Positions 1 to 55,888 of a stretch of 64,000 nucleotides of DNA are shown here, piece after piece (the first letter of the stretch is position 1; the number at the start of each line of letters is the position of its first letter). A program made the position numbers and the translations under genes. The DNA lies in assembly GCA_027488985.1 (NCBI GenBank), contig JAIYAR010000010.1:62001-126000 (forward strand). Direction: 5' to 3'. The notes below the pieces were generated by a model. It saw only the letters and a program-made list of their open reading frames with translations, searched no databases and was not told the origin of the DNA. This DNA is from Comamonadaceae bacterium (lineage in GTDB: Bacteria; Pseudomonadota; Gammaproteobacteria; Burkholderiales; Burkholderiaceae_C).

Positions 1-1175
1 CACTTGTCTTTGGCTACTGCCGAAATGTGGATGTCCGCAATGCCGGTATGCACGGATTTGCCATAGCGCCGGGCGTTCTCCAGCAGGTTGGTAATGACGC
101 GTCCGAGCTCGACCTCGTCAGCGTAAACCAGCATGTCATCTTCCATGTCCACCCGCACTTGGACGTCCGGCAGTTTGCGCATGGAGTAAATGCAGGTGTC
201 CACCACATCACCCAGGACCACCGGCGTGAGGCTCACCCGGTCAGGTCGGGCGTAGTCGAGAAATTTGTCAATAATGGCGTCGAGCTGGCTGATGTCGGCC
301 GCCATGTGGGCGCGGGCCTCTTCGTTGTTGACGCTCATCTCGGTTTCAAGGCGCAGGCGGGCGAGTGGAGTGCGCAGGTCATGTGAAATGCCGGCCAGCA
401 TCAGCGCGCGATCTTGCTCCACCTTGGCCAGTTTCTGGGCCATGCGGTTGAAACCGATATTGACCTCGCGGATCTCGCTGGTGTTCACGTGCTCATCGAG
501 CTGGCTGGCGCTAAAGTTTCCTTCCCTCATGCGACTGGCCGCAAACGACAGTTCTTTGAGCGGGCGGTTGATCAGACCTGCAATCAGCGCAGCGCCTGCC
601 AGGGACATGACGGTCGCCACAATCAGCCAGATCAGCCAAGTCGTGCCGCCTGCAGGATTGAACTTGGCCTGGTCGGTTTGTAGCCAGTAGTCATCGCCGT
701 CAATCACAAAGCTCACCCACAGACCCTGCTGGCCATTCATGCTGCTGGCCACCACGGTGCCTTTGCCTAGCCGGGTGCCCAGCTCGGCAACGACAAGGCG
801 GCTGAAGGCGTCGTTGTCTTTGGACTCAAAGGTGTCGCCAGGCTCACGCGGCACAATGCGCAGACCTTCCTCGTCCTTCATGGTCTTGATGAGCGAAATG
901 CGTGCAATGCCGTCAGCATAAACAAGCGCTGCCCGGCTCAGGTTGACTTGGGAGGCCAGTAGCTGGGCGGTCTGCACCGCACGGGGTTCAAATTCCAGGG
1001 CACGCAGAGTCTGCAGCCACGCCATGATGCTGCCGATCAGCAGAATGGCGATCAGGAAAAAAGTGCGCCAGAACAGACTGACCCGCGAGAACGGCTTGCG
1101 CCATCCACTGGGTTCATCTTCAGCCAGATCAGCGGGAGCACTGGCGTCAAAGTCAGGAATTTGGGTGGCTTGCAA
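1..1175 (-). CDS. envZ: EnvZ-type sensor histidine kinase (C-terminus cut by window edge)
   Basis: Membrane sensor kinase expected to phosphorylate the OmpR-like regulator encoded just upstream on the same strand. Reading the minus strand from a TTG at 1175 gives a first membrane segment near residues 25-45, a periplasmic stretch, a second segment near 180-200, a HAMP-like linker, an H-box reading GISHDLRTPLARLRLE around residue 264, and an N-box NLLENARRYG around residue 365. The G-boxes lie beyond base 1. No ATG is available in frame before the first membrane segment; the TTG has a GGAAA about 8 bases upstream, so the start is inferred. The coding frame opens just after the regulator stop at 1193, so the two form an operon. 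EnvZ is the closest well-known family; the signal sensed cannot be read from the sequence. Confidence 0.85.
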   Translation of the reverse strand, partial: MQATQIPDFDASAPADLAEDEPSGWRKPFSRVSLFWRTFFLIAILLIGSIMAWLQTLRALEFEPRAVQTAQLLASQVNLSRAALVYADGIARISLIKTMKDEEGLRIVPREPGDTFESKDNDAFSRLVVAELGTRLGKGTVVASSMNGQQGLWVSFVIDGDDYWLQTDQAKFNPAGGTTWLIWLIVATVMSLAGAALIAGLINRPLKELSFAASRMREGNFSASQLDEHVNTSEIREVNIGFNRMAQKLAKVEQDRALMLAGISHDLRTPLARLRLETEMSVNNEEARAHMAADISQLDAIIDKFLDYARPDRVSLTPVVLGDVVDTCIYSMRKLPDVQVRVDMEDDMLVYADEVELGRVITNLLENARRYGKSVHTGIADIHISAVAKDK

Positions 1176-1192
1176 ACGGTTTTTCCAGTGGG

Positions 1193-1927
1193 TCAGGCAG
1201 CTGCTTCATCCGGCACAAACACATAGCCGACGCCCCAGACCGTCTGGATAAAGCGGGGGGTGGTGGGGTCGGTTTCCAGCAGTTTGCGCAAGCGGGAGAC
1301 TTGGACATCCAGGCTGCGGTCAAAGGGTTCGAACTCCCGGCCACGCGAGAGCTGGGCCAGTTTTTCCCGGGAAAGTGGAATGCGGGGGTGGCGCACCAGC
1401 GCCTTGAGCATGGCAAATTCACCCGTAGTCAGCGTGATCTCCTGGTCCGCTTTTTTGAGGGTACGCAGGCCGAGGTCAAACACGAAGGTACCGAACTTCA
1501 CCACTTCGTTGTCGCTGGAGGGCGCGCCTGGCGCCTCCTGGGTAGGCCGGCGGCGCAACACTGCATGGATACGCGCCAGGAGCTCGCGGGGGTTGAACGG
1601 TTTGCCCAGGTAGTCGTCCGCACCCACTTCAAGGCCCACGATGCGGTCGATGTCCTCGCCCTTGGCAGTCAGCATGATGACGGGGGTTACATCGTTGGCA
1701 GCGCGCAGGCGGCGGCAGATGGAGAGGCCATCTTCACCGGGCATCATCAGATCCAGCACGATGAGATCTGCGGTTTCACGCAGCATGATTCGGGTTAGCG
1801 ACTTGCCGTCTTCGGCCAAAAAGACCTCAAAGCCTTCCTGGGTCAGGTACCGGCGAAGCAGGTCACGGATGCGCGCATCGTCATCCACCACAAGGATTTT
1901 GTTGGGTCGGTTGGATTGGGCTTGCAT
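1193..1927 (-). CDS. ompR: OmpR-family DNA-binding response regulator
   Basis: Response regulator of 244 residues. The receiver domain (about 1-125) carries the acidic pair in VVDDDARI, the phospho-acceptor Asp59 in LIVLDLMMPG, the Thr in VIMLTAKG and the Lys in DDYLGKPFNPREL. A winged-helix effector domain follows, with SRGREFEPFDRSLDVQVSRL typical of OmpR itself rather than PhoB. It is followed directly by the kinase gene, as in ompR-envZ. A nested pair of inverted repeats in the upstream region is a candidate autoregulatory site. The family is certain; identity as OmpR sensu stricto is inferred from the motif and the partner. Confidence 0.92.
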   Translation of the reverse strand: MQAQSNRPNKILVVDDDARIRDLLRRYLTQEGFEVFLAEDGKSLTRIMLRETADLIVLDLMMPGEDGLSICRRLRAANDVTPVIMLTAKGEDIDRIVGLEVGADDYLGKPFNPRELLARIHAVLRRRPTQEAPGAPSSDNEVVKFGTFVFDLGLRTLKKADQEITLTTGEFAMLKALVRHPRIPLSREKLAQLSRGREFEPFDRSLDVQVSRLRKLLETDPTTPRFIQTVWGVGYVFVPDEAAA

Positions 1928-1937
1928 GGCGTCCTCA

Positions 1938-2019
1938 GATTTGTAACAGGCGGGATTTTGCGCGGATGGACGCGCAAACCGGCGCCTTGGGCTGCCGCTT
2001 TGACACTATGTTACAAATC
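1938..2019. promoter_or_regulatory. Nested inverted repeats between ompR and a divergent gene
   Basis: GATTTGTAACA at 1938-1948 is matched exactly by its reverse complement TGTTACAAATC at 2009-2019. Inside lies a second dyad, TTTGCGCG at 1957-1964 and CGCGCAAA at 1971-1978. The position just upstream of the ompR start and between divergent genes suggests operator sites. Binding by OmpR is inference only. Confidence 0.45.
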
Positions 2020-2088
2020 CGGGCCGGGTTTGATGGCCTTGCCGTCCCGGAACTGACACCATGTCGGTTCGCCTTGTCCATACAGATC

Positions 2089-2337
2089 ATGCACCTTATC
2101 CGGTTTGTTGTCCCCATTCTGCTTGCCAGTGGTACCACGCTCTCGCAGTCCGGCCCTGCTCGCGGAGATGCAGCGCCCACGGAATCGTCTGCCGGTGTGG
2201 CGGCTGCCAAACGACGCAGCGAGCTCAAAGCCGTTCTCAAGGCGGAAATTCCCGCCAACCCGGGACCTGGGGAGGGGCTGGATGCGGCGGAACGCCAGCA
2301 ACTGCGCAAGCAACTCAAGGAACAGCCAGCGCACTGA
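2089..2337 (+). CDS. Small exported hypothetical protein
   Basis: An 82-residue protein if started at the ATG at 2089, chosen because it begins with a basic residue and a hydrophobic stretch (MHLIRFVVPILLASG) that looks like a signal peptide; the longer frame from 1966 would hide it. The mature part is charged and ends with RRSELKAVLKAEIPANP and DAAERQQLRKQLKEQ, a layout seen in small periplasmic proteins of Burkholderiales. No function recognised. It is divergent from ompR and shares the inverted-repeat region with it. Confidence 0.6.
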   Translation: MHLIRFVVPILLASGTTLSQSGPARGDAAPTESSAGVAAAKRRSELKAVLKAEIPANPGPGEGLDAAERQQLRKQLKEQPAH

Positions 2338-2423
2338 GGTCGCGCCCACGGGTTTCCCGGAAACAACCGGCTAAATCCGGGGCAAACATACTGCTCAAAA
2401 AACAGGCTAAGCGCCATAATGCT

Positions 2424-2439
2424 CTGAATAATTATTCAG
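2424..2439. promoter_or_regulatory. Perfect 16-bp palindrome upstream of a GGDEF-EAL gene
   Basis: CTGAATAATTATTCAG reads the same on both strands and lies about 48-64 bases before the two possible starts of the downstream c-di-GMP gene. Perfect even-length palindromes of this size are typical dimer operator sites. The binding protein is unknown. Confidence 0.45.
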
Positions 2440-2487
2440 GGAGAGACGTTTGGTTTTCCATAACGATCTTTGCTACGGGAGAGCCCT

Positions 2488-5400
2488 GTGGCGCTAGACC
2501 TTGCCAAAAGCGTGGCGTTGCTGCTTGCGCTGAGCTTGACGTACAGCTTCACCATCCGGTCCATGCGCCGGCATCCGTTCCTGAGCCAGGCGGCAACAGG
2601 CCTGCTGTTCGGTGTTATCGGAATCGTCGGCGTGCTGAACCCGGTGGCGCTGGCGCCCGGCGTTCCAGTCGATGCCAGTGCGGTTGTTCTGGCCATGGTG
2701 ACGGCTGTTACGGGCCTCTGGACGGGCGGCTTGGCGGTAGCCCTGTTGATCCTCTTGAAGTTTGGAATGGACGGCCTACAGGCATCGTCATCGGTGGCGG
2801 TGCTTTTGGCGGGTCTTTTGGCTGGGTGGGGCTACCACCAAGGTGTGTACAAGGCAAGGCGTGAGCATGTCAAAGCCACGTTGCTGTTTTTCAGCGCGTT
2901 TGCCACTCTGGTACTGGGATGTGGTTTGCTGTTGCTCCCAGGCATTGGTGCCGGGCCAGCTGCTGCCGATCTGGCGGTCATGTTGCTGGTTTACACCTTC
3001 GCAGGCTGGGTGCTGGGCCGGATTCTTGTGGATGCCCGCGAGCGTTTGCACAGTGAAGAGGCGCTGCGTGCGCACGAAGCGCGCTTGCGGGCTACCGTTA
3101 GCGCGATTCCAGACCTTTTGTGCCTGTTGGACCACGAAGGGCGACTGGTTGAAGTGCTGAGCCAAACCGAACTGGACCCCTCCATGCCCCTGAGCGCGCT
3201 GCTCGGTCGCCGTCTGCATGATCTTTTGCCGGGTCCTGAGGCGGATCGGGTGTTGGCGCAGGTCCATGCCACGCTCAAAAGCCGGGAAACGCTGTCATTT
3301 GAGGCGGATTTCCCCACCCGCGATGGCTTGCGGCGTTTAGAGGGGCGGATACACGCCTTGGCGGAGGACGAGGGGAAAGGCAACCTCGTGGTTTTGCTTG
3401 CCAGAGATGTCACCAGCCGGCACGCTGCAGCCCAAGCGCTGTTGGCGTCTGAGTTGCGATTTCGCAGCCTCCTACAAAACATTGGTGCAGTGGCAGTGCA
3501 GGGCTTCCGCCCGGACGGCACGATCACCTACTGGAATCACGCCTCCGAGACGCTCTATGGCTATCCGGAAGCCGAAGCGCTGGATCGCGATCTGCTTGAG
3601 CTCCTCCTCGCGCCGCAGGCCCAGCCGGAGTACCGTGACGCACTGGCACAGATGCGCGAGAGCGGCCAAGCCATGGAAGCGCGGGAAATGCTCCTCGTAC
3701 ATCGCAATGGGCACGAAATTCCGGTGTTGTCCGGTCACGCCGCAGTAACCGGTACGGCAGGCGCGCAGGAGTTCTTCCGCTTTGATATTGATCTATCGGA
3801 GCGCAAGCGCACCGAGGCAGAGCTCCGGGTGGCCGCGACGGCTTTTGAAGCCCAGGAGGGCATGATGGTGACGGATGCCCAGCGGCGCATCTTGCGTGTG
3901 AACCAGGCCTTCACCCGGATTTCTGGCTATGAAGATGTGGAGGTAATAGGCCAGACGCCCACCATGTTCAGTTCCGGCTGGCACGACAACAACTTTTATG
4001 CCGAGATGAACGGCGCGCTCGCCAACATCGGCACGTGGGAGGGGGAAATGTGGAACCGCCGCAAGAACGGCGAAATTCATCCCCAGTGGTTGCATGTGAC
4101 GGCGGTAACAGATGACACAGGCGCCGTCAGCCATTTTGTGGCAACCGTCACCGACATTACCCAGCGCAAGGCCGCAGAGGACCAGATCCGGCAACTCGCG
4201 TTTTACGACCCGCTCACAGGCCTGCCCAACCGGCGCATGCTGATTGACCGGCTGCGCCACGCACTGGCCAGCAGTGCCCGCAGTGCGCATTGCGGGGCAT
4301 TGCTTTTCATCGACCTCGATCATTTTAAGAACCTCAACGACACGCTGGGACATGACAAAGGGGACTTGTTGCTGCAACAGGTTGCGCAACGCCTGCTCGA
4401 TACCGTCCGCGAGGAAGACACGGTGGCCCGGTTGGGCGGCGATGAGTACGTGGTGATGCTTGAAGGGCTGGATGAGTCCTCTGAAATCGCGGCCTCCCAG
4501 GCCACGACCGTGGGTGAAAAAATCATCACCAAGCTCAATTGGCCCTACCAGCTTGCAGGGCACGAATTTCACAGCACACCGAGCATAGGATTGACCTTGT
4601 TCAACGGTCACGAGGTAGAGGTGGAAGAGCTGCTCAAGCATGCGGACCTTGCCATGTACCAGGCCAAGGGAGCCGGTCGCAACGGCATGCGCTTTTATGA
4701 CCCGCAGATGCAGGCTGCAGTGACCAAGCGCGCCGAGCTCGAGGCCGACATCCGGCAGGGCATTTTGTACGGACAGTTCCTGCTGTATTTCCAGCCTCAG
4801 GTAGACGGCGCAGGCCGTGTAGTGGGCGCTGAGGCCCTGCTGCGCTGGAAGCATCCGTCACGGGGTATGGTATCGCCGGTGGAATTCATTCCAGTTGCCG
4901 AGGACTCCGGGCAGATCCTGACCCTGGGCAGCTGGATTCTGGAGACGGCGTGCGCGCAGCTGGTGGAGTGGGCGGGACATCCGGATACTGAAGCCCTGAC
5001 ACTGGCCGTCAACGTGAGCACCCGCCAGTTCCGGCAGCAGGATTTTGCGCAGCACATCCTCGACATGCTGGATTACACCGGAGCCAATCCGCATCGGCTG
5101 AAACTGGAACTCACAGAAAGTTTGTTGGCAGACAACCTGGATGATGTGATCCAGAAAATGTCGGCCTTGCGTGCGCGGGGCGTCGCTTTTTCATTGGACG
5201 ATTTCGGCACTGGTTACTCCTCGCTGTCCTACCTCAAACGCTTGCCGTTGGACCAGCTGAAAATTGACCAGTCCTTTGTGCGGGATTTGCTCACAGACCC
5301 CAACGATGCGGCGATTGTCAAAACCATCTTGGCTCTGGGGCAAACCCTGGGCATGAAAGTCATTGCCGAGGGCGTGGAAACCAGCGCTCAGCAGGACTTT

Positions 5401-47266: not shown

Positions 47267-49186
47267 ATGCAAGCTACAGGCCTTTTTCACAGCGCATCTC
47301 GCGCCATTGCGCCGCGTAAACCTCTCACAGTCAGTCAGTGGGCAGATGCCAACCGGGTGCTCAGCAGCAAGGCCAGCGCTATCCCTGGCCGTTGGTCTAC
47401 TGACCGGTCCCCGCTGCTTCGTGAACCCATGGACTGCATGTCCGCCCGCAGTCCGGTGCAGGAGATCGTGTGCATCTTCCCGATCCAGTTTGGCAAGTCC
47501 GAGCTGGAGACCAACGTCATCGGCTACACCATGTGCGAGAACCCCGGGCCCATCATGGCGGTGTTGCCCGGCGAAGTCTCTCAGCTCAAGTTCATCAACC
47601 AAAAGCTCAACCCGCTGCTGGAGGAAACCCCCGCCTGCGCCGAAGTCCTCACTAACACCAACAGCCGCAACAGCTCCAACACCAAAGAGTTCAAAGACTT
47701 TGCCGGCGGCCAGCTCTATGTGGAGCACGCCGGCAACGCCAAGCGCCTCAAGGGCACCAGCGCCAAGCTGGTCGTGGCCGATGAATTCAGTAGCTTCGCC
47801 AGCAGCCTTAAAACCGGCGACGACCCCGACGCACTCTTGGACGGCCGAACCAGCGCATTCCCCAGCACCTTCAAGCGCATGAGCGTGGGCACACCTGAAA
47901 TCGTGGGACAGTGTCGCCTAGAGGCGAAATGGGAAATCTCCGATCAGCGCTATGCCCACGTGCCTTGCCCACACTGTGGCCACATGCACCCATTGACTTG
48001 GTCGGGCTTTCACTGGTCCACAGGTGTGGACGGTCGAGTGATTCGTGCATGGGTGGTCTGCCCAGAATGTGGCTCCGAGATTGAAGAGCACCACAAAGAC
48101 TGGATGACTGATCGTAAGCAGTGGGTGCCGACATACCCTGGGCGAAAAATCTGGGGCTACCGCGCCAACTTCCTTTACTACCGTTTCGGCCTCGGTCCCC
48201 GCTGGCAAGACATGGCGCAAGCCTGGGTGGATGCCCAAGGCGACCCCGCCCGCCTCAAAACCTTCATGAACGACCGCCGCGCTGAAGCCTGGGAAGACCA
48301 AGCCATGCGCAACGTCAAGCACAACGCCATTGCCGATCGCGCCGAGCCCTACGCCCTGCGCGTGGCCCCCAAGGGTGTGCTCTGCGTCACTGCCGGCGTG
48401 GACACGCAAGACAACCGCTTGGCCGTGCAGCTCGTGGGCTGGGGCCGTGGCATGGCCTTCTGGGTGCTGGACTATGTCGAGCTGCTCGGCGATCCGGCCG
48501 GCCCCGAGGTGTGGAATGCGCTCACCGAATACCTCAACAAGCCCATCCAGTCCGAGTACGGAGGCACCCTGCGCGTGGAAGCCATGGCCAACGACGCCGG
48601 TGGCCACCGCACCGAGGATGTGAAAAACTTTGTCCGCAGCCGCCGCGTGCGCCGCCCCTTGTGCATCTTCGGCGCCATCCCCAACAACGCGCCCGTGCTC
48701 AGCAAGGGCAAGCTGCAGGACGTTACCTGGAAGGGCCAGCACGACAAACGCGGCGTGATGACCCACCACGTGGGCACTGTCGGCATCAAGCACTGGCTCT
48801 ACAGCCGCCTGAGTGTGGATAGCGCCAAAGACCCCGAGCTGCGCGTCACCCACTTCACCAGCGAACTGCCTGCCGAATACTTCCCCGGGCTGGTGTCCGA
48901 AACCTACAACCCCGCCCAAAACCGCTTCGTGAACCGCCGCGGTGCCCGCAACGAGCCCTTGGACACATGGGTCTACGCCTTTGCCGCCGCTCACCACCCC
49001 GAGTTGCGCCTGCACCGCGCCACCAAGGCCGACTGGGACCGCCTGGAGACCCTGCTGCTCAACCAGGTCGCCCCCGGCGTCTACGAAGCCCCCGAAACCA
49101 AGCCCGCACCGGTCGCTCAGCCGGTGCAGCGCCCCCTTATTCAGCGTCCATCCCATAACCGCAACCCATCGAGGCCCACATGGTGA
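47267..49186 (+). CDS. Phage terminase large subunit (GpA family)
   Basis: 639 residues, lambda gpA type. ATPase motifs: FPIQFGKSELETN (Walker A region, about 70) and LVVADEFSSF (Walker B). A zinc-finger-like CPHCGHMHPLTW and CPECGSEIEEHH pair, then a nuclease domain starting VDTQDNRLAVQLVGWG. Cuts and packages DNA at cos sites. ATG with GGGGAGAG upstream. Confidence 0.93.
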   Translation: MQATGLFHSASRAIAPRKPLTVSQWADANRVLSSKASAIPGRWSTDRSPLLREPMDCMSARSPVQEIVCIFPIQFGKSELETNVIGYTMCENPGPIMAVLPGEVSQLKFINQKLNPLLEETPACAEVLTNTNSRNSSNTKEFKDFAGGQLYVEHAGNAKRLKGTSAKLVVADEFSSFASSLKTGDDPDALLDGRTSAFPSTFKRMSVGTPEIVGQCRLEAKWEISDQRYAHVPCPHCGHMHPLTWSGFHWSTGVDGRVIRAWVVCPECGSEIEEHHKDWMTDRKQWVPTYPGRKIWGYRANFLYYRFGLGPRWQDMAQAWVDAQGDPARLKTFMNDRRAEAWEDQAMRNVKHNAIADRAEPYALRVAPKGVLCVTAGVDTQDNRLAVQLVGWGRGMAFWVLDYVELLGDPAGPEVWNALTEYLNKPIQSEYGGTLRVEAMANDAGGHRTEDVKNFVRSRRVRRPLCIFGAIPNNAPVLSKGKLQDVTWKGQHDKRGVMTHHVGTVGIKHWLYSRLSVDSAKDPELRVTHFTSELPAEYFPGLVSETYNPAQNRFVNRRGARNEPLDTWVYAFAAAHHPELRLHRATKADWDRLETLLLNQVAPGVYEAPETKPAPVAQPVQRPLIQRPSHNRNPSRPTW

Positions 49187-49497
49187 CCCCTACCCACAGC
49201 AAAGCCGCCACCCCTGCCGCCCATGCTGGCAGCGAGAACGACATCATTGAGGACATGCTCTCTCTTGTCCTGGCCATGGCCCCCGGCTTCACCGCCGAGC
49301 TGGCCAAGCAGGCCGACAAGCAGATCCGCGCCAAATGGGCGGGCGACCGGCCCTACATTGCCCGCCGCAGCGGGGAGGGCAGCAGCGAGCGCAATGCCCA
49401 GATCAAAGCCGATTACCTCAAGGGCGAGCGCATTGCCCTGCTGGAGCGTCGCTACAAAGTCAGCCGCTCGCGCCTGTGGCAGATCATCAAGAGCTGA
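49180..49497 (+). CDS. Mor-like transcription activator
   Basis: 105 residues. KQIRAKWAGDRPYIARRSGEGSSERNAQIKADYLKGERIALLERRYKVSRSRLWQIIKS matches the Mor/C family of phage activators, including the helix-turn-helix at the end. In Mu such proteins turn on middle or late genes. Here it lies inside the head operon, between terminase and the gpW-like gene, overlapping the terminase stop. Confidence 0.7.
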   Translation: MVTPTHSKAATPAAHAGSENDIIEDMLSLVLAMAPGFTAELAKQADKQIRAKWAGDRPYIARRSGEGSSERNAQIKADYLKGERIALLERRYKVSRSRLWQIIKS

Positions 49498-49555
49498 AAA
49501 CGTCTAGTTTCTTGCCTTAAAAACTAGACAGCATGGCCCCCAAAGTAGGGGCCAA
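49497..49555 (+). repeat. Duplicated hairpin leader, copy A
   Basis: AAAACGTCTAGT, spacer, TGCCTTAAAAACTAGACA, then GGCCCCCAAAGTAGGGGCCA directly before the ATG of the gpW-like gene. Two hairpins: GTCTAGT/ACTAGAC and GGCCCC/GGGGCC. The likely ribosome site AGGGG lies inside the second stem. Near-identical copy at 53,972-54,028. Confidence 0.7.
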
Positions 49556-50127: not shown

Positions 50128-51639
50128 ATGGCCATGCAATATCGCAGCCTCATCCAGCGCGCACGCGGTGCCGTGGCCCGCTACTTCGGTGGACAAGCCC
50201 AAACGCGGCGTTTTCAGGGCGCACAGCTTGGCCGCTTGGCCTCTGACTGGATCACCACTGAGCAGTCCATCAACCAAGAGCTGCGCGGCGACCTCAACCG
50301 ACTGCGCTCCCGTGGCCGCGATCTGCGCCACAACAACGACTATGCCGCCAAGTACACGCGCATGGTCACCAGCAACATCATCGGCCCCGGTGGCATCCGT
50401 CTGCAGTCCCGTGTGCAAGACGCACCAGGCAAACCAGACCGCGCTGCCAGCAACGCCATTGAAGAGGCATGGGCCGAATGGGGCCTCGCCTGCGATGTAG
50501 CCGGCCAGCAAAGCCTGCGCGACCTGTGCACCACCATCGTCGGTGGCCTGCCCAGTGATGGCGAGTTTCTGGTCCGCTTCATTCAAGGCAAAGACGCCGG
50601 CAACAAATTCAACTTCGCCCTGCAGGTCATCGATGTAGACCGGATCGACACCACCTACAACGTGGGCGCTACCAGCACCACCAACGCCGTCATCATGGGC
50701 GTCGAGGTCGATGCCTACCGCCGCCCCGTGGCCGTGCACCTGTTTGCTGCTCACCCCAATGACGGCGTCAGCAGCAGCCGCACCCGGATCCGCGTGCCCA
50801 CCACCGAGGTGCTGCACCGCTTCAAAGTCGAGCGCGCCGAGCAGCTGCGCGGCATCCCTTGGATGGCCCCGGGCATGCTCAGCCTGCACCATCTGGGCGG
50901 CTTCATGCTATCTGCCGTGCTGGCTGCCGAGCATGGTGCCAATCACTATGGTTTCTTCACCAGTGCCGAGGCGCAAGCACCCATTGGTGCGCCAGAAAGC
51001 GCTGAGCCGGGTGCCCCCATCATCACCACCAGCCAGCCCGGCGTGTACGACACACTGCCCGCCGGCACAACCTTCCAGCCGCACGAAAGCAAATACCCCA
51101 ACGAGGTGTTTGGCCCGTTCGTCAAAACCGCTCTGCAGCGTGTCGCCAGCGGCTGGTGCGTGGCTTACCACTCCGTCGGTAACGATCTGGAAGGCGTCAG
51201 CTACAGCAGCATCCGCTCTGGTGCCCTGGAAGAGCGCGACCGCTGGATGGATGACCAAGAGTGGTTCATCAATGTCTTCATGGAGCCCGTGTTCCGTGCA
51301 TGGCTCAAGATGGCCCTGCTCAGTGGCGCCATCACATTCCCAAATGGCAACGCCTTGCCCTACAGCAAGCTGGCCAAGTTCAGCCGCCATGAGTGGCAGG
51401 CCCGCCGCTGGGAATGGGTCGACCCCAAAGGCGACATGGAAGCCAAGATCCTCGCCGTCAAAGCAGGCCTCATGTCACCGCAAGACCTGTGCGCTGCCAT
51501 GGGCTACGACTTCGAGGACACGGTCGACGCCATCGCCATGGCCATGAAGCTGGCCGCCGAAGTGGGCGTGCAGCTCACCGCCTACGACGGCACCCCCGGC
51601 GCCACCGCCGCGGTGCCTGCCAAAGCCCCCACCGCTTAA
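50128..51639 (+). CDS. Lambda-family portal protein
   Basis: 503 residues. Family stretches: SINQELRGDLNRLRSRGRDLRHNNDYAAKYTRMVTSNIIGPGGI, FKVERAEQLRGIPWMAPG, and EGVSYSSIRSGALEERD. Twelve copies form the ring through which DNA enters the capsid. ATG with AAGGG upstream, 8 bases after the gpW-like gene. Confidence 0.93.
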   Translation: MAMQYRSLIQRARGAVARYFGGQAQTRRFQGAQLGRLASDWITTEQSINQELRGDLNRLRSRGRDLRHNNDYAAKYTRMVTSNIIGPGGIRLQSRVQDAPGKPDRAASNAIEEAWAEWGLACDVAGQQSLRDLCTTIVGGLPSDGEFLVRFIQGKDAGNKFNFALQVIDVDRIDTTYNVGATSTTNAVIMGVEVDAYRRPVAVHLFAAHPNDGVSSSRTRIRVPTTEVLHRFKVERAEQLRGIPWMAPGMLSLHHLGGFMLSAVLAAEHGANHYGFFTSAEAQAPIGAPESAEPGAPIITTSQPGVYDTLPAGTTFQPHESKYPNEVFGPFVKTALQRVASGWCVAYHSVGNDLEGVSYSSIRSGALEERDRWMDDQEWFINVFMEPVFRAWLKMALLSGAITFPNGNALPYSKLAKFSRHEWQARRWEWVDPKGDMEAKILAVKAGLMSPQDLCAAMGYDFEDTVDAIAMAMKLAAEVGVQLTAYDGTPGATAAVPAKAPTA

Positions 51640-51657: not shown

Positions 51658-53004
51658 ATGCCGCCACCAGATATCAGCTACAAGGTCGACGTACTCTCCG
51701 ACCAAAACCGCGACAACATCGGCTTCAAGAACGCCCAGGGCGTGCAGCGTTATGTGCCCACGGTGAATACCGATCCTTTCACCGGAATGGGTGCATTCGC
51801 TGGGCCAGATGGAAAGCCAATTCTTTCGGGTGGTTTCACCGTCAAGGCTGCACTTGGTATTGCTGGGGCGCAATCCAACGAGCAAGGCACCACACTGCGG
51901 CAGGATTCCATTGGCGTTTGGCAGCGTACATCGGTGGCCGCACCCTCGCAGAACATCTATGAACCAGTCAAGCTTTCAGTGGGTTTTGGTTCCATGTTTA
52001 CCCTGACCGCTGAACTGCTGGCGCGTGATGGTATCCAAGTTGATCTATACAACGGCGCAGTTGGTGGTTCATCTGGCTATCTTGATTGGACTGGCTCGGT
52101 GTTGATGGCGGGGCGCGGCAACTCTGTAGCCTATCGAGGCAAACGCAACAGCCTTGGCGCAGGCGACCCTGGGCACCGTGGCGAACTGATCTTTGTGAAC
52201 GGCGCTACATGGGAAGCAACTACAGGTAACCGGCATTTGGTTTTCTGGTCAGATGCAGCAAACCCGATTACTGTAGGCGGCACTCAGTGGTTTCAAGACC
52301 CTGGCTACATCGTCAAGGAAACCAACCTTGTCACGGCTGGTACGCCTCCGACATTCCCAGGCTCACCCGCTGTCAGCAACACCGTCACCGATGGCGGCAT
52401 TGTGTGGACATGTATCCATGTGGGCGCAAAGACTACAGACGCAGGCAACATCCACGTTAACCGCCTGACTGAGGACGGATTTGACCCTTATTACATGCTG
52501 GTTCGTGTGCGCAATGCGCTCATGTCTGCGCCCGTATCGCCAAATAAGCGCTATGTGTACTTCCAAAACGGCCAATCAGATGCGGGTGTGCAAACTGCGA
52601 TTTACACCATGTGCCTACGGATGATGGCGCAGTATTTTGGGCAGGCTCCCTATCTGATTCAGGCGATTTTTGGGCTGTCCATCTTCAACCCTTCGCAGTC
52701 GCAAGCAAACTGGGATTTGATTGAAACCTCACTATCCGGCAGCGGATTGGCAGGCGCTCCCAACTACGCCACATCGCCCTTGACAACTGGGTTGACCAGC
52801 GGCGGCTATCACTTGGCGAATCCTGGTGAATCAATCACAAACTTTGGCTTCTATTACGGCCAGTCGCTGTATCGGGCCTTCGGCACCAACACAGTGTCCA
52901 TGCTTCAGCCCGGCGACCCTCACACCACGCTAGAGGGTGCTGTTCTTTGTGCGCAAGCGCTCGCACCTACCTTGAGCAAGATTCTGCGCAACAGTGCAAC
53001 GTAA
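51658..53004 (+). CDS. SGNH/SASA-like hydrolase inside the head gene cluster
   Basis: 448 residues, ATG with AGGAG upstream. After a 100-residue N-terminus without known domain comes an SGNH-like core: VGFGSMFTLTAELLARDG (nucleophile block), YNGAVGGSS (block II), YFQNGQSDAG (block III, like the QGESDA of sialate O-acetylesterases) and GGYHLANPGESI (histidine block). Probably a carbohydrate esterase, virion-bound or cargo. Its codons are visibly less GC-rich than those of flanking head genes, suggesting separate origin. It occupies the place of the protease gene in lambda order. Confidence 0.6.
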   Translation: MPPPDISYKVDVLSDQNRDNIGFKNAQGVQRYVPTVNTDPFTGMGAFAGPDGKPILSGGFTVKAALGIAGAQSNEQGTTLRQDSIGVWQRTSVAAPSQNIYEPVKLSVGFGSMFTLTAELLARDGIQVDLYNGAVGGSSGYLDWTGSVLMAGRGNSVAYRGKRNSLGAGDPGHRGELIFVNGATWEATTGNRHLVFWSDAANPITVGGTQWFQDPGYIVKETNLVTAGTPPTFPGSPAVSNTVTDGGIVWTCIHVGAKTTDAGNIHVNRLTEDGFDPYYMLVRVRNALMSAPVSPNKRYVYFQNGQSDAGVQTAIYTMCLRMMAQYFGQAPYLIQAIFGLSIFNPSQSQANWDLIETSLSGSGLAGAPNYATSPLTTGLTSGGYHLANPGESITNFGFYYGQSLYRAFGTNTVSMLQPGDPHTTLEGAVLCAQALAPTLSKILRNSAT

Positions 53005-53020
53005 TCCCCTCAGCACTAAG

Positions 53021-53923
53021 ATGACGCCCCTCTACTTCCTTCTGGGCCGGCTGCTGCCAAGGTTCAGGACGGTCGAGGAGTGGGCTGTCATCTACCGGCA
53101 GCTGGTTGAAGCCCGCCCGATTGGGGCTAAGACCAAGGCAAACCGCCACGGTGCACTGGCTCATGTGCTGAGCTACCTGGGCAGCCGGGTTGTTTCAGCA
53201 GTTCGCCCCCATGAGGTGGCGGCTATGGTGCAAGACATTGCCAGCACTCACCCACAGACGGCAAAGCGGGTGCTGCACGAAGCCGCGGATCTGTTCAATG
53301 AGTGCATAAACTACGGCTGGATCGACCGCAACCCAGCGGCCGGCGTCAAGCCTCCACCATGCCGTGTGCAGCGTAAGCGCCTTACGCTGGGCAATTGGCA
53401 GGATCTGAAGGCCCATGCCGAGGAGCATATGCCCCCATGGGTCTCCAACATGATGGTGCTGGCACTTGTGACTGGTCAGCGCCGGTCTGACCTTGTGAAA
53501 ATGCAGTTTGATGATGTGTGGGATGACCATTTGCACATCGAGCAGGCCAAGACGGGCACCAGGCTGGCTTTGCCGCTCAATCTCAAGCTCGATGCCATCG
53601 GTGTGAGCCTGAAGCAGGCTATTGAGCAATGCAAGAGCACGGGAGTGCAGAGCGCTTACATGCTTCACAAGCACAACGGGGACCGGCTGGCAGATGCAAG
53701 TCTCTCCGCGAGGTTTGAGGAGGCACGAAAGGCAGTGATTCCGAGCAGCGATGGCATTCCCGCATCACTGCATGAGTGCCGGTCTCTGAGTGAGCGGCTT
53801 TATCGGGCTCAAGGCCTCAACACCATGGTGCTGCTTGGCCACAAGCACCAAGCCATGACGGACATTTACAACGACGACCGGGGCCTCACAAAAGGCACTT
53901 GGAAAACGTTGTTGCTGACATAG
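53021..53923 (+). CDS. Second tyrosine recombinase within the structural genes
   Basis: 300 residues from ATG 53021 (a GTG at 52994 in frame is possible). The catalytic set looks complete: Arg in VTGQRRSDLVKMQ, Lys in QAKTGTRLAL, His-x-x-Arg in SLHECRSLSERLY, His in LGHKHQ and Tyr in DIYND. It is unlike the integrase at 30.7 kb, lacking the DUF4102 arm domain. Integrases are not normal in head operons; it starts about where the SGNH gene stops and is followed by a terminator. Confidence 0.88.
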   Translation: MTPLYFLLGRLLPRFRTVEEWAVIYRQLVEARPIGAKTKANRHGALAHVLSYLGSRVVSAVRPHEVAAMVQDIASTHPQTAKRVLHEAADLFNECINYGWIDRNPAAGVKPPPCRVQRKRLTLGNWQDLKAHAEEHMPPWVSNMMVLALVTGQRRSDLVKMQFDDVWDDHLHIEQAKTGTRLALPLNLKLDAIGVSLKQAIEQCKSTGVQSAYMLHKHNGDRLADASLSARFEEARKAVIPSSDGIPASLHECRSLSERLYRAQGLNTMVLLGHKHQAMTDIYNDDRGLTKGTWKTLLLT

Positions 53924-53932
53924 CCCCCACGA

Positions 53933-53951
53933 CCCGCTCCGGCGGGTTTTT
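53933..53951 (+). terminator. Rho-independent terminator after the second integrase
   Basis: CCCGC (53933-53937), TCCG loop, GCGGG (53942-53946), then TTTTT. It lies in the path of late transcription, ahead of the protease-capsid gene. Confidence 0.75.
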
Positions 53952-53971: not shown

Positions 53972-54028
53972 AAAACGTCTAGTCCTTTGCCTTAAAAACT
54001 AGACACCTCGGCCCTGAAAGTAGGGGCC
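53972..54028 (+). repeat. Duplicated hairpin leader, copy B
   Basis: AAAACGTCTAGT, TGCCTTAAAAACTAGACA, then GGCCCTGAAAGTAGGGGCC ending at the ATG of the protease-capsid gene. Same two-hairpin layout as copy A at 49,497; only the short spacers differ. Confidence 0.7.
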
Positions 54029-55888
54029 ATGACTACCAAATCATCCATCCCCGAGAGCTTGCAGCGTCACCTGCAGACCGGTCGCACCGAGCGAGCCTTG
54101 CTGGTGGACCGTGCAGCGGTTGACAAGGAGGCACGCACCGCCACCCTGGCATTCGCCAGCGAGACCCCGTACGAGCGCTACTGGGGCATTGAAATTCTGG
54201 ACTGCACCGCCACCAGCATGCGCACCGGCCGCCTGCGCAGCGGTGCAAACCTCCTGTGCGACCACGACACCAAAGATGTTGTGGGCGTCATCGAATCTGT
54301 CGAGATCGGCAGCGACCGGGTAGGTCGTGCCGTGGTGCGCTTTGGAAAAAGCGCTCGTGCAGAGGAAGTGTGGCAAGACGTGGTTGATGGCATCCGCCGC
54401 AACGTCAGCGTCGGCTACATGATTCACAAAGCCCAACTGGTCGAAAGCGCTGACGGTGTGGAAACCTACCGCGTCACCGACTGGGAGCCCTTTGAAGTCT
54501 CCATGGTCAGCGTTCCCGCTGACGCAACCGTAGGCGTAGGCCGCAGCGCTGAGCAGCTGGAGGCCCCTGTGGCACCCGCAGCCATCGCAGCCGCACCCGC
54601 CACCCCTGCACCCCAAAACCAACCCCAAGGAAAAGCCATGACTGATGTAGTCGTTGTCGAGCAGCGCAATCACGCTGCTGAAATCTCCAAAATCGGTGCC
54701 ACCGCTCCTGGCGGCGCTGAAATGGCCCTGTCCGCCATCCAGCGCGGCATCACCGTCGAAGAGTTCCAGCGTGAGCTCATCGCCCACATGTCCACCAAGC
54801 CTCTGCCCACTGCAGACATTGGTTTGACAGCCAAAGAGGCCAAGCGCTTCAGCGTTCTGAACATCGCCCGCTACCTGGCAGACCCCTCTGCTGCCAACGA
54901 GCGCGCTATGGGCTTTGAGCGCGAGTGCTCTGCAGCCGTCGCCAAAGTAATGGGCCGCGAAGCCCGTGGCGTGTTTGTCCCCTCCGAAATCCAGCGCCGT
55001 GATCTGGTGGTGGGCACACCTACTGCCGGTGGCAACTTGGTTGCCACAGAGCTCAAGGCCAGCAGCTTCATCGAAATGCTGCGCAACGCCATGGTGCTGG
55101 ACCAGCTCGGCGTCACCATGCTGACCGACCTGCGCGGCAACATCGCCATCCCCAAGCAAACCGGCGGCGCCACCATCTACTGGGTTGCTGAAAACACAGC
55201 CCCCACAGAGAGCCAGCAGTCTGTCGGCCAAGTGCTCATGTCTCCCAAGACAGCGGGCGGCTTCACCGATATCAGCCGCACATTGCTGAATCAAGCCTCC
55301 ATCGACGTGGAAAACTTCGTTTTGGGCGACTTGGCAAAGCAGTTGGGTCTGGGCATCCAGTTGGCAGCCATTGCCGGTACCGGTGCAAGCAACCAGCCTT
55401 CCGGCCTGTTGACCCGCATCACCCCATCCGTGATCGGCGGCACCAACGGCTTGGCACCCACTTGGAACAACATCATTGACCTGGAAACCAACGTGGCCAC
55501 CGCCAACGCGGATGTGGGCACCATGGGTTACCTGGTTAACGCCAAGACACGCGGCATCCTCAAGCGCACACAAAAGTTTGCCAGCACCAACGGCGACCCG
55601 ATCTGGGACCGCAACACCAACGAGCCGCTCAACGGCTACCGCGCTGCAGTCACCAACGCCGTGCCTTCCAACCTGACCAAGGGCACCAGCAACGGCGTCT
55701 GCTCCGCAGGCATCTTCGGCAACTTCTCCGATCTGATGATCGGCATGTGGGGTGCCATTGACCTGATGCGTGACCCCTACGCAGCCTCCACCTCCGGCGG
55801 CGTGCGCATCGTGGCTCTGCAAGACGTGGACGTAAACGTCCGCAACACCGAAAGCTTCGCCACAGTCGTTGACTGGCTGACAGCGTAA
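54029..55888 (+). CDS. Prohead protease-major capsid protein fusion (HK97 type)
   Basis: 619 residues. Residues 1-175 are an HK97-type (U35) prohead protease: TLAFASETPYERYWGIEIL, LLCDHDTKDVVGVIES with His, RRNVSVGYMI with Ser. A low-complexity Ala/Pro linker (about 178-202) leads to the capsid part, ending in the HK97-fold stretch PKQTGGATIYWVAENTAPTESQQSVGQV onward. An internal ATG at 54638 preceded by AAGGA could start free capsid protein at residue 204. The start is fixed by the leader hairpin. Confidence 0.9.
   Translation: MTTKSSIPESLQRHLQTGRTERALLVDRAAVDKEARTATLAFASETPYERYWGIEILDCTATSMRTGRLRSGANLLCDHDTKDVVGVIESVEIGSDRVGRAVVRFGKSARAEEVWQDVVDGIRRNVSVGYMIHKAQLVESADGVETYRVTDWEPFEVSMVSVPADATVGVGRSAEQLEAPVAPAAIAAAPATPAPQNQPQGKAMTDVVVVEQRNHAAEISKIGATAPGGAEMALSAIQRGITVEEFQRELIAHMSTKPLPTADIGLTAKEAKRFSVLNIARYLADPSAANERAMGFERECSAAVAKVMGREARGVFVPSEIQRRDLVVGTPTAGGNLVATELKASSFIEMLRNAMVLDQLGVTMLTDLRGNIAIPKQTGGATIYWVAENTAPTESQQSVGQVLMSPKTAGGFTDISRTLLNQASIDVENFVLGDLAKQLGLGIQLAAIAGTGASNQPSGLLTRITPSVIGGTNGLAPTWNNIIDLETNVATANADVGTMGYLVNAKTRGILKRTQKFASTNGDPIWDRNTNEPLNGYRAAVTNAVPSNLTKGTSNGVCSAGIFGNFSDLMIGMWGAIDLMRDPYAASTSGGVRIVALQDVDVNVRNTESFATVVDWLTA

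What the first reader, a model, noticed from the sequence alone, without database searches (positions are those of the whole stretch)
51658..53951. SGNH hydrolase plus second complete integrase wedged into the head operon
Lambda order is portal, protease, capsid. Here portal is followed by a less GC-rich SGNH-like gene, then a full tyrosine recombinase unlike the prophage integrase, then a terminator, then protease-capsid. This looks like a mobile cargo module inside the late genes, or a recombination-based switch. The terminator would block late transcription unless antitermination or a new promoter acts.
Basis: partly seen in the sequence, partly recalled or inferred. Interest (0 to 1): 0.8.

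Follow-up and report, generated by a model that had tools for sequence, protein, structure and literature searches.

The report
Phages swap surface-enzyme gene cassettes
The odd gene pair in this prophage's head operon is an exchangeable surface-enzyme cassette lying between two short recombination-site-like DNA sequences, next to a recombinase that probably swaps such cassettes; unrelated phages carry many other cassettes framed the same way.

Summary
Between portal and protease-capsid lie an SGNH-like gene (51658-53004) and a lambda-family tyrosine recombinase (ATG 53021-53923) that keeps its catalytic residues but lacks the arm-binding domain. Most of the SGNH-like gene is a cassette between two 21-bp dyads with different 7-bp centres: a 5' site in frame inside the gene (TCACCGG, 51779-51785) and a 3' site at its stop codon (TCAGCAC, 53010-53016), just before the recombinase. 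The same site pair frames unrelated hydrolase/tailspike-type genes in many unrelated phages. Two phages (L183/L201) about 94% identical on both sides differ between the sites, breaking at the last base of the 5' centre. A 91%-identical relative of this prophage (L305) has another gene in the slot and no such recombinase; 27 of 41 relatives have an empty junction. Two recombinase clades each keep their own site type. I read this as natural two-site cassette exchange of phage surface enzymes, with the recombinase as likely agent. Recombination itself was not observed, most site carriers lack this recombinase, the window's own 5' site is degenerate, and the SGNH call rests on motifs. The terminator belongs to the phage backbone.

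The parts
50128..51639 (+). portal gene, left neighbour
   Evidence: PF05136, E 2e-85
51658..51771 (+). N-terminal anchor part of the SGNH-like gene; the stretch that resembles L305 (66% aa)
   Evidence: that it anchors the protein to the virion is inference
51772..51792 (+). 5' site: arm GATCCTT, centre TCACCGG (51779-51785), right arm degenerate (AATGGGT); 5 mismatches to consensus RATCCYB-TCACCGG-GGGGATT; in frame, starting at codon 39
51779..53016 (+). exchangeable cassette, from 5' centre to 3' centre: C-terminal SGNH-like part and its stop codon
   Evidence: site-to-site exchange in other phages; protein relative L003 (66% over residues 51-448) lacks the 3' site
53003..53023 (+). 3' site: AATCCCC, centre TCAGCAC (53010-53016), weak right arm TAAGATG; overlaps the stop codon 53002-53004
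53021..53923 (+). INT2, arm-less lambda-family tyrosine recombinase (GTG 52994 is the longer reading)
53933..53951 (+). terminator-like hairpin with T-run; phage backbone, shared with L305
53972..54028 (+). dyad leader of the capsid gene; backbone (second copy at 49497-49554)
54029..55888 (+). fused protease-capsid gene, right neighbour
   Evidence: PF04586 and PF05065

Best explanation
A natural two-site cassette-exchange system. A phage carries the anchor-coding start of a surface protein, followed by a slot between two tyrosine-recombinase core-like sites that share their arms but differ in their 7-bp centres. The slot holds one of many hydrolase or binding cassettes. When two phages, or a phage and a prophage, meet, a short arm-less lambda-family recombinase recombines 5' site with 5' site and 3' site with 3' site. 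One C-terminal cassette thereby replaces another, in frame, without excision or inversion, because the two centres do not match each other. The recombinase gene, when present, lies just outside the 3' site. Shown: the sites, their pairing, exchange between them in related phages, recombinase adjacency, and one site type per recombinase clade. Inferred: that this recombinase catalyses the exchange, that it acts in trans (or acted in the past) for the many carriers without it, and that the proteins sit on the virion.
For: 3' site: 49 of 76 stretches found by a blind scan have an ORF of at least 120 aa ending at the site; over all loci held, 59 of 84 distinct sites, against a mean of 0.6 (maximum 2) for random positions, with gene ends in all three frames. 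5' site: in 34 of those 59 genes at <=5 mismatches, against 1 of 59 after one codon shuffle each; same frame in 34 of 34; centre exact in 33 of 34 including wobble positions, although ACC is 24% of Thr codons and GGG 18% of Gly codons in these genes. 18 of 27 stretches with an exact 5' site show a 3' site 1.0-2.0 kb downstream (12 exact, 3 with one and 3 with two mismatches). Exchange: L183/L201 94.7% identical over 6518 bp up to the last base of the 5' centre, no match in the cassette, 94.0% again from the 3' site; L172/L272/L276/L287 and L218/L282 behave alike; L206/L220 share a cassette, not its flanks. Recombinase: of 71 non-redundant relatives, 19 have an A-type and 13 a B-type 3' site at their start, each type confined to one side of the tree; chance about 1% per window for each. 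14 of 17 A recombinases with 3.7 kb upstream also have a 5' site there; controls 0 of 17, 1 of 17 and 0 of 11. Catalytic residues are kept.
Against: No recombination was observed. Only 3 of 76 A-site and 2 of 25 B-site stretches hold this recombinase family; 2 of 40 site-bearing records have a weak match; any PF00589 is in 11 of 30; complete lytic phage P26059A has two A-type cassette genes and no PF00589 match in 84,008 bp. 25 of 59 genes lack a recognisable 5' site. In the window the 5' site just reaches the threshold (5 mismatches), and against L305 the DNA match ends at 51735, before the 5' site, so that pair does not place the breakpoint. The right arm of the 3' site is weak. 29 of 71 recombinase relatives show neither site at their start.
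Confidence: 0.68

Rival explanations
1. The sites are short conserved linkers at which ordinary homologous recombination (phage Red-like or RecA) swaps cassettes; the recombinase is incidental.
For: Most carriers lack the recombinase, including a complete cultured phage. Short shared linkers at phage module borders are known from the literature (recalled, not searched for by that name).
Against: Both sites have the 7+7+7 dyad form with shared arms and different centres; the centre is stricter than the arms, even at wobble positions. Site type follows recombinase clade, and the recombinase abuts the 3' site.
Confidence: 0.17
2. The recombinase is a small selfish element that homes to 3' sites and does not move the cassettes.
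For: INT2 is an insert relative to L305, starting at the 3' centre. The block shared with L004 runs from the 3' site to 7 bp past the recombinase stop codon, where a partial echo of the site (CCCCCAC) stands in the window.
Against: It would not explain the 5' site with the same arms, nor exchange between the two sites. The echo is absent after the recombinase in several relatives, e.g. L005, L049, L050.
Confidence: 0.1
3. The recombinase is a lysogeny integrase (the motif being attP), or drives an inversion switch.
For: It is a lambda-family integrase, and the motif resembles a tRNA 3' end: a site inside the tRNA-His of L133 matched the motif profile.
Against: In bacterial contigs L125, L126 and L130 and in L043 cargo gene, motif (where present) and recombinase lie together among phage genes, not at a phage-host border. 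The window has another integrase with an arm domain, its genome has one exact motif copy, and the two centres differ.
Confidence: 0.04

Closest known systems
Recombinase-mediated cassette exchange (laboratory method with two heterotypic sites)
   Same: Two sites with the same arms and different spacers flank a cassette; swapping needs matching spacers (principle recalled).
   Different: Natural, in phages, and in frame inside a gene; catalysis not yet shown.
Integrons (IntI, attI/attC cassettes; also cassettes without an integrase, CALINs)
   Same: Tyrosine recombinase beside a recombination site, diverse cassettes, many cassettes found without the recombinase.
   Different: Two short dyad sites with different centres instead of folded attC sites, single cassettes, protein domains swapped in frame, recombinase nearest to lambda Int and not IntI. 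Integron features are recalled.
Lambda/phage 21 integrases
   Same: Core-binding and catalytic domains, catalytic residues, 7-bp spacer between inverted core-like arms.
   Different: No arm-binding domain; short, Lys-rich or Pro-rich N-termini instead; in the late operon, with a separate integrase present in the window.
Shufflons (Rci) and tail-fibre inversion systems
   Same: Site-specific recombination varies the C-terminal end of a surface protein (recalled; listing).
   Different: No inverted alternative segments found; variation lies between phages.
Morons and tailspike modularity
   Same: Horizontally moving surface enzymes between structural genes; modular tailspike exchange is described (PMC10408124, listing and start of abstract only).
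   Different: Exchange here is bounded by two defined DNA sites.

Membership tests
Lambda-family tyrosine recombinases | Catalytic R-K-H-R-H-Y and core-binding domain | tested here: met
   Alignment to 1z1b, E 2e-41; residues invariant in 8 relatives
Lambda-family tyrosine recombinases | N-terminal arm-binding domain | tested here: not met
   Match starts at lambda residue 75; short N-termini in relatives
Integron | IntI-type integrase | tested here: not met
   The six PDB sequences matched at E<=1e-4 are all named integrase/lambda integrase and align as lambda Int; no dedicated IntI model was searched
Integron | Array of cassettes each with its own 3' site | tested here: not met
   One 3' site per locus in nearly all; exceptions L055 and L060; P26059A has two complete genes in a row
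Integron | attC single-strand folding | not tested
   -
Two-site cassette exchange (works like) | Two sites, same arms, different spacers | tested here: met
   type B
Two-site cassette exchange (works like) | Cassettes differ between phages with matching flanks, breakpoints at the sites | tested here: met
Two-site cassette exchange (works like) | Recombinase catalyses exchange between like spacers only | not testable with these tools
   needs bench work
SGNH hydrolase (window gene) | Profile match or SGNH fold | tested here: inconclusive
   No profile match, no PDB match, fold models unusable; motifs by eye only
Shufflon / invertible switch | Inverted identical sites around invertible segments | tested here: not met
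   The two centres differ; no inverted copy of the cassette among the 25 longest inverted repeats listed for the region

The most novel reading that the evidence does not exclude
Unrelated phages, lytic and temperate, draw on a shared pool of surface-enzyme cassettes through standardised two-site sockets. Dedicated arm-less recombinase lineages, each with its own site pair, serve the sockets, and the recombinase of one phage can act in trans on another: a phage-level counterpart of the integron that swaps protein domains in frame.
Probability: 0.5. Interest if true: 0.93.

Novelty: categorically new. Interest (0 to 1): 0.88.

Why it matters
How phages exchange host-contact proteins across unrelated backbones is usually put down to illegitimate or homologous recombination (recalled). 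Defined sockets and a dedicated recombinase would turn that question about tailspike mosaicism into one that can be tested with purified parts. The sites would let annotators find exchangeable surface enzymes by sequence alone, and would add a natural dual-site recombinase pair to the laboratory toolbox.

Tried and rejected
Rejected: (a) dyad GTCTAGT-N14-ACTAGAC (49502, 53977) as the recombinase's site: it is a repeated leader of two structural genes, and analogous dyads precede the capsid gene in relatives with an empty junction. (b) tRNA-derived attP: a resemblance, but one exact motif copy in the genome and no tRNA in the window. (c) The recombinase inserted in a terminator hairpin loop: full hairpins occur in L083 and L095, but I saw no right-hand halves just beyond the recombinase; the printout was cut, so this check is partial. 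(d) Integron-like arrays: one 3' site per locus in nearly all. (e) Structure models of the SGNH-like protein: mean pLDDT 28.5 twice, so no fold search was made. (f) The homologue in Curvibacter phage P26059B (29%) has no sites. (g) Pattern scans for close relatives of the SGNH-like gene found none in the bacterial genome collection and one, L003, in the viral one.

Weak points of the counts: the 3' core was fixed by the search pattern, so there only the flanks and the position of gene ends are informative. A 16-base pattern of this kind should also hit by chance in a collection of this size, so the 27 of 76 stretches without a gene end may be chance. In one search the 3' site was sought with up to two mismatches in 5 kb without its own control; by the rate (1% per 381 bp) about one stretch in eight would show one by chance, and 12 of the 18 are exact. 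The second count printed was mis-indexed by one base and is replaced. Of 80 protein references listed, I left out 11 (L173, L184, L217, L222, L224, L226, L227, L232, L038, L262, L264) as short, incomplete or near-duplicate, and added L305 and L337. Of 75 portal relatives I examined 54 (L305-L358); several empty junctions are near-duplicates (L315/L318/L319/L320, L322/L323, L314/L324, L334/L335). The 40 records include some whose motif has no gene end. The clades were read by eye from a FastTree drawing without support values; 77 recombinases passed the length filter and 71 remained after removing near-duplicates. Many gene names in neighbouring phages (P22-like, Mu-like, S49 protease, tape measure, DUF3800, methyltransferase) are my reading of translations, not profile matches.

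Full report
What is there. The window is G000:C3:62001-126000 of a bacterial genome. Its prophage has a lambda-type head module: GpA terminase, a Mor-like gene, a joining protein, a PF05136 portal and a fused protease-capsid. INT2 aligns with lambda integrase residues 75-348 from its residue 17 on (E about 2e-41), so core-binding and catalytic domains are present and the arm domain is not. The six catalytic residues (named by recall of lambda Int) are invariant in eight relatives. The 448-aa gene is SGNH-like by motif only.

First clue. Relatives of INT2 in the viral collection (95 relatives among 164 stretches, best 80 kept) and in bacterial genomes (37 loci) occur in phages with unrelated head genes. 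In many of the closer ones (about 46-84% identical) the recombinase follows a large, unrelated surface-type gene inside the head or tail operon: after a P22-like portal (L004), between portal and S49-type protease (L005), between tail tube and tape measure of a P2-like prophage (L125), after a lambda-type portal (L049) (gene names by eye; part of the printout was cut). In one relative of this head module (L043, a clade-B recombinase) a comparable group sits one gene earlier, before the portal.

The 3' site. The start regions of these recombinases share one DNA motif, TCTAATCCCC-TCWGCAC, at the stop codon of the preceding gene and 0-30 bp before most recombinase starts. A profile of it scores 14 or more just upstream of the recombinase in 20 of the 31 loci listed (in L066 at 124 bp), with seven further hits elsewhere in 1.08 Mb and 11 hits in shuffled sequence. 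Clade B has another motif, GATTCCCATCCCC-TGCCGGT, in the same position. Blind scans of the viral collection with strict forms of the two motifs gave 76 and 25 stretches. In 49 of the 76 an ORF of at least 120 aa ends at the motif. Only 3 of the 76 and 2 of the 25 hold a recombinase of this family.

The 5' site. Those genes share one more thing: near the start of the reading frame many code N/D-P-V/L/F-T-G-G-I. The DNA behind it is a second dyad, RATCCYB-TCACCGG-GGGGATT. It is present at <=5 mismatches in 34 of 59 genes, against 1 of 59 in codon-shuffled controls, in the same frame in 34 of 34, with the centre exact in 33 of 34 through wobble positions, although ACC, GGG and third-position C are minority choices in the same genes (24%, 18%, 21%). 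Both sites are 7+7+7 with the same arms and different centres; the right arm of the 3' site is weaker. Clade B has an equivalent pair (GGTGTCA in the gene, TGCCGGT at the stop): 11 of 25 genes at <=3 mismatches, all 11 in one frame, control 0 of 25. Starting instead from the exact 5' site, 18 of 27 stretches show a 3' site 1.0-2.0 kb downstream; in 6 of the other 9 less than 1 kb of sequence is held beyond the site.

Exchange. Two phages, L183 and L201, are 94.7% identical for 6518 bp up to the last base of the 5' centre, without a match through the cassette, and 94.0% identical again from the 3' site. Four Mu-like phages (L172, L272, L276, L287) share the flanks beside the sites at 76-91% and show no DNA match (E<=1e-8) between them; their left matches end 14-38 bp past the start of the 5' centre and their right matches begin 6-13 bp before the 3' centre. 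L218/L282 behave alike (79.7% and 91.8%). The reverse also occurs: L206 and L220 share a cassette (66% DNA identity from site to site) without matching flanks, and the cassettes of L183, L199 and L272 are 48-60% identical proteins in different phages. The cultured phage P26059A (KY981271) has two such genes with both sites each and related anchors (73% DNA identity, by way of L214, a contig stretch identical to it), separated by an HNH gene. PMC5964084, of which I saw passages only, describes P26059A as a lytic siphovirus isolate; the words integrase and recombinase do not occur in its main text.

The window itself. L305 is 91.6% and 90.6% identical on the two sides. It has a related anchor (66% aa), a different 558-aa protein, the 3' site CCCATCCCCTCAGCAC, and then directly the same terminator and leader as the window, with no INT2 relative; its one tyrosine recombinase lies elsewhere in the record. 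So INT2 is an extra 0.9 kb between the 3' centre and the terminator. Of 54 portal relatives examined none has an INT2 relative; of the 41 with both portal and capsid, 27 have a 65-150 bp junction (some are near-duplicates), 13 carry 1.7-6.3 kb of other sequence, and 1 is a split portal reading; L337 carries both A sites and no recombinase in the stretch. The window's 5' centre is exact but its right arm is degenerate (5 mismatches in 21), and the L305 pair does not resolve the 5' breakpoint, since the DNA match ends at 51735.

Cassette content. Of 71 proteins scanned (69 of the 80 listed, plus L305 and L337), 24 match Lipase_GDSL_2, 11 Lipase_GDSL and 5 polysaccharide deacetylase; single or paired matches go to several glycoside hydrolase families, beta-helix and endosialidase-barrel models. 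PHROG matches include lipase, tail fibre and head decoration. The window's own protein matches none. This fits enzymes acting on cell-surface sugars; that they sit on the virion is inference.

Mechanism. Shared arms, fixed 7-bp centres stricter than the arms, two different centres, exchange at the sites, and site type following recombinase clade (19 A and 13 B among 71 relatives, never crossed, 10 weak and 29 without) together point to two-site exchange by these recombinases. Against it, most carriers lack the recombinase: a weak match in 2 of 40 records, any tyrosine recombinase in 11 of 30, none in the complete genome of P26059A. It must then act in trans or have acted in the past, much as integron cassettes are found without an integrase (recalled). 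Homologous recombination at short linkers remains the main rival.

Known or new. Ten full-text searches of the open library (I saw listings only, apart from passages of PMC5964084) listed no paper whose title or abstract start describes such a system. Preprints and most subscription journals are not in that library, so 'new' means new to what could be searched. It works like recombinase-mediated cassette exchange and resembles integrons, but fails integron membership on integrase type and cassette arrays. I rate it categorically new because no known natural system that I can name combines two heterotypic sites with in-frame exchange of a protein's C-terminal part between viruses.

Noticed in passing
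window 49497-49554 and 53972-54029: A 58-bp repeat (dyad GTCTAGT-N14-ACTAGAC plus AAAGTAGGGGCC) stands just before the joining-protein gene and the capsid gene; L305 has both copies too, and relatives with an empty junction have analogous dyads before capsid. A Mor-like activator gene (49180-49497) lies beside the first copy: possible regulatory leader.
   Followed up: partly
L382 (KY981271.1) 124-4603: Cultured lytic phage P26059A has two A-type cassette genes in a row with an HNH endonuclease gene between them and no PF00589 match in the whole genome.
   Followed up: partly
L043, L044, L045, just upstream of the recombinase: Some clade-B recombinases are preceded by a small divergent ORF (about 59 aa, KPKRGPPFK motif) that is conserved with the recombinase in a sharply bounded 1.3-kb block (91% identical in L044/L045).
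   Followed up: no
L128 and L057, contig ends: Two contigs end at the 3' site or at the recombinase start, as would happen if the upstream cassette varied within the population.
   Followed up: no
L342, portal-capsid junction: The same junction holds a gene that looks like a DNA methyltransferase (by eye), so it may be a general insertion spot.
   Followed up: no
one member of the 71 scanned proteins, probably L268:4268-6511: One cassette protein matches an FAD-dependent oxidoreductase (PF12831, E 1e-41; the assignment to L268 is by its sequence start), so cassettes are not only glycan enzymes.
   Followed up: no
L218 and L235: In some cassettes the 5' site lies in a short first ORF and a second complete ORF ends at the 3' site, so a cassette can hold more than one gene.
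   Followed up: no
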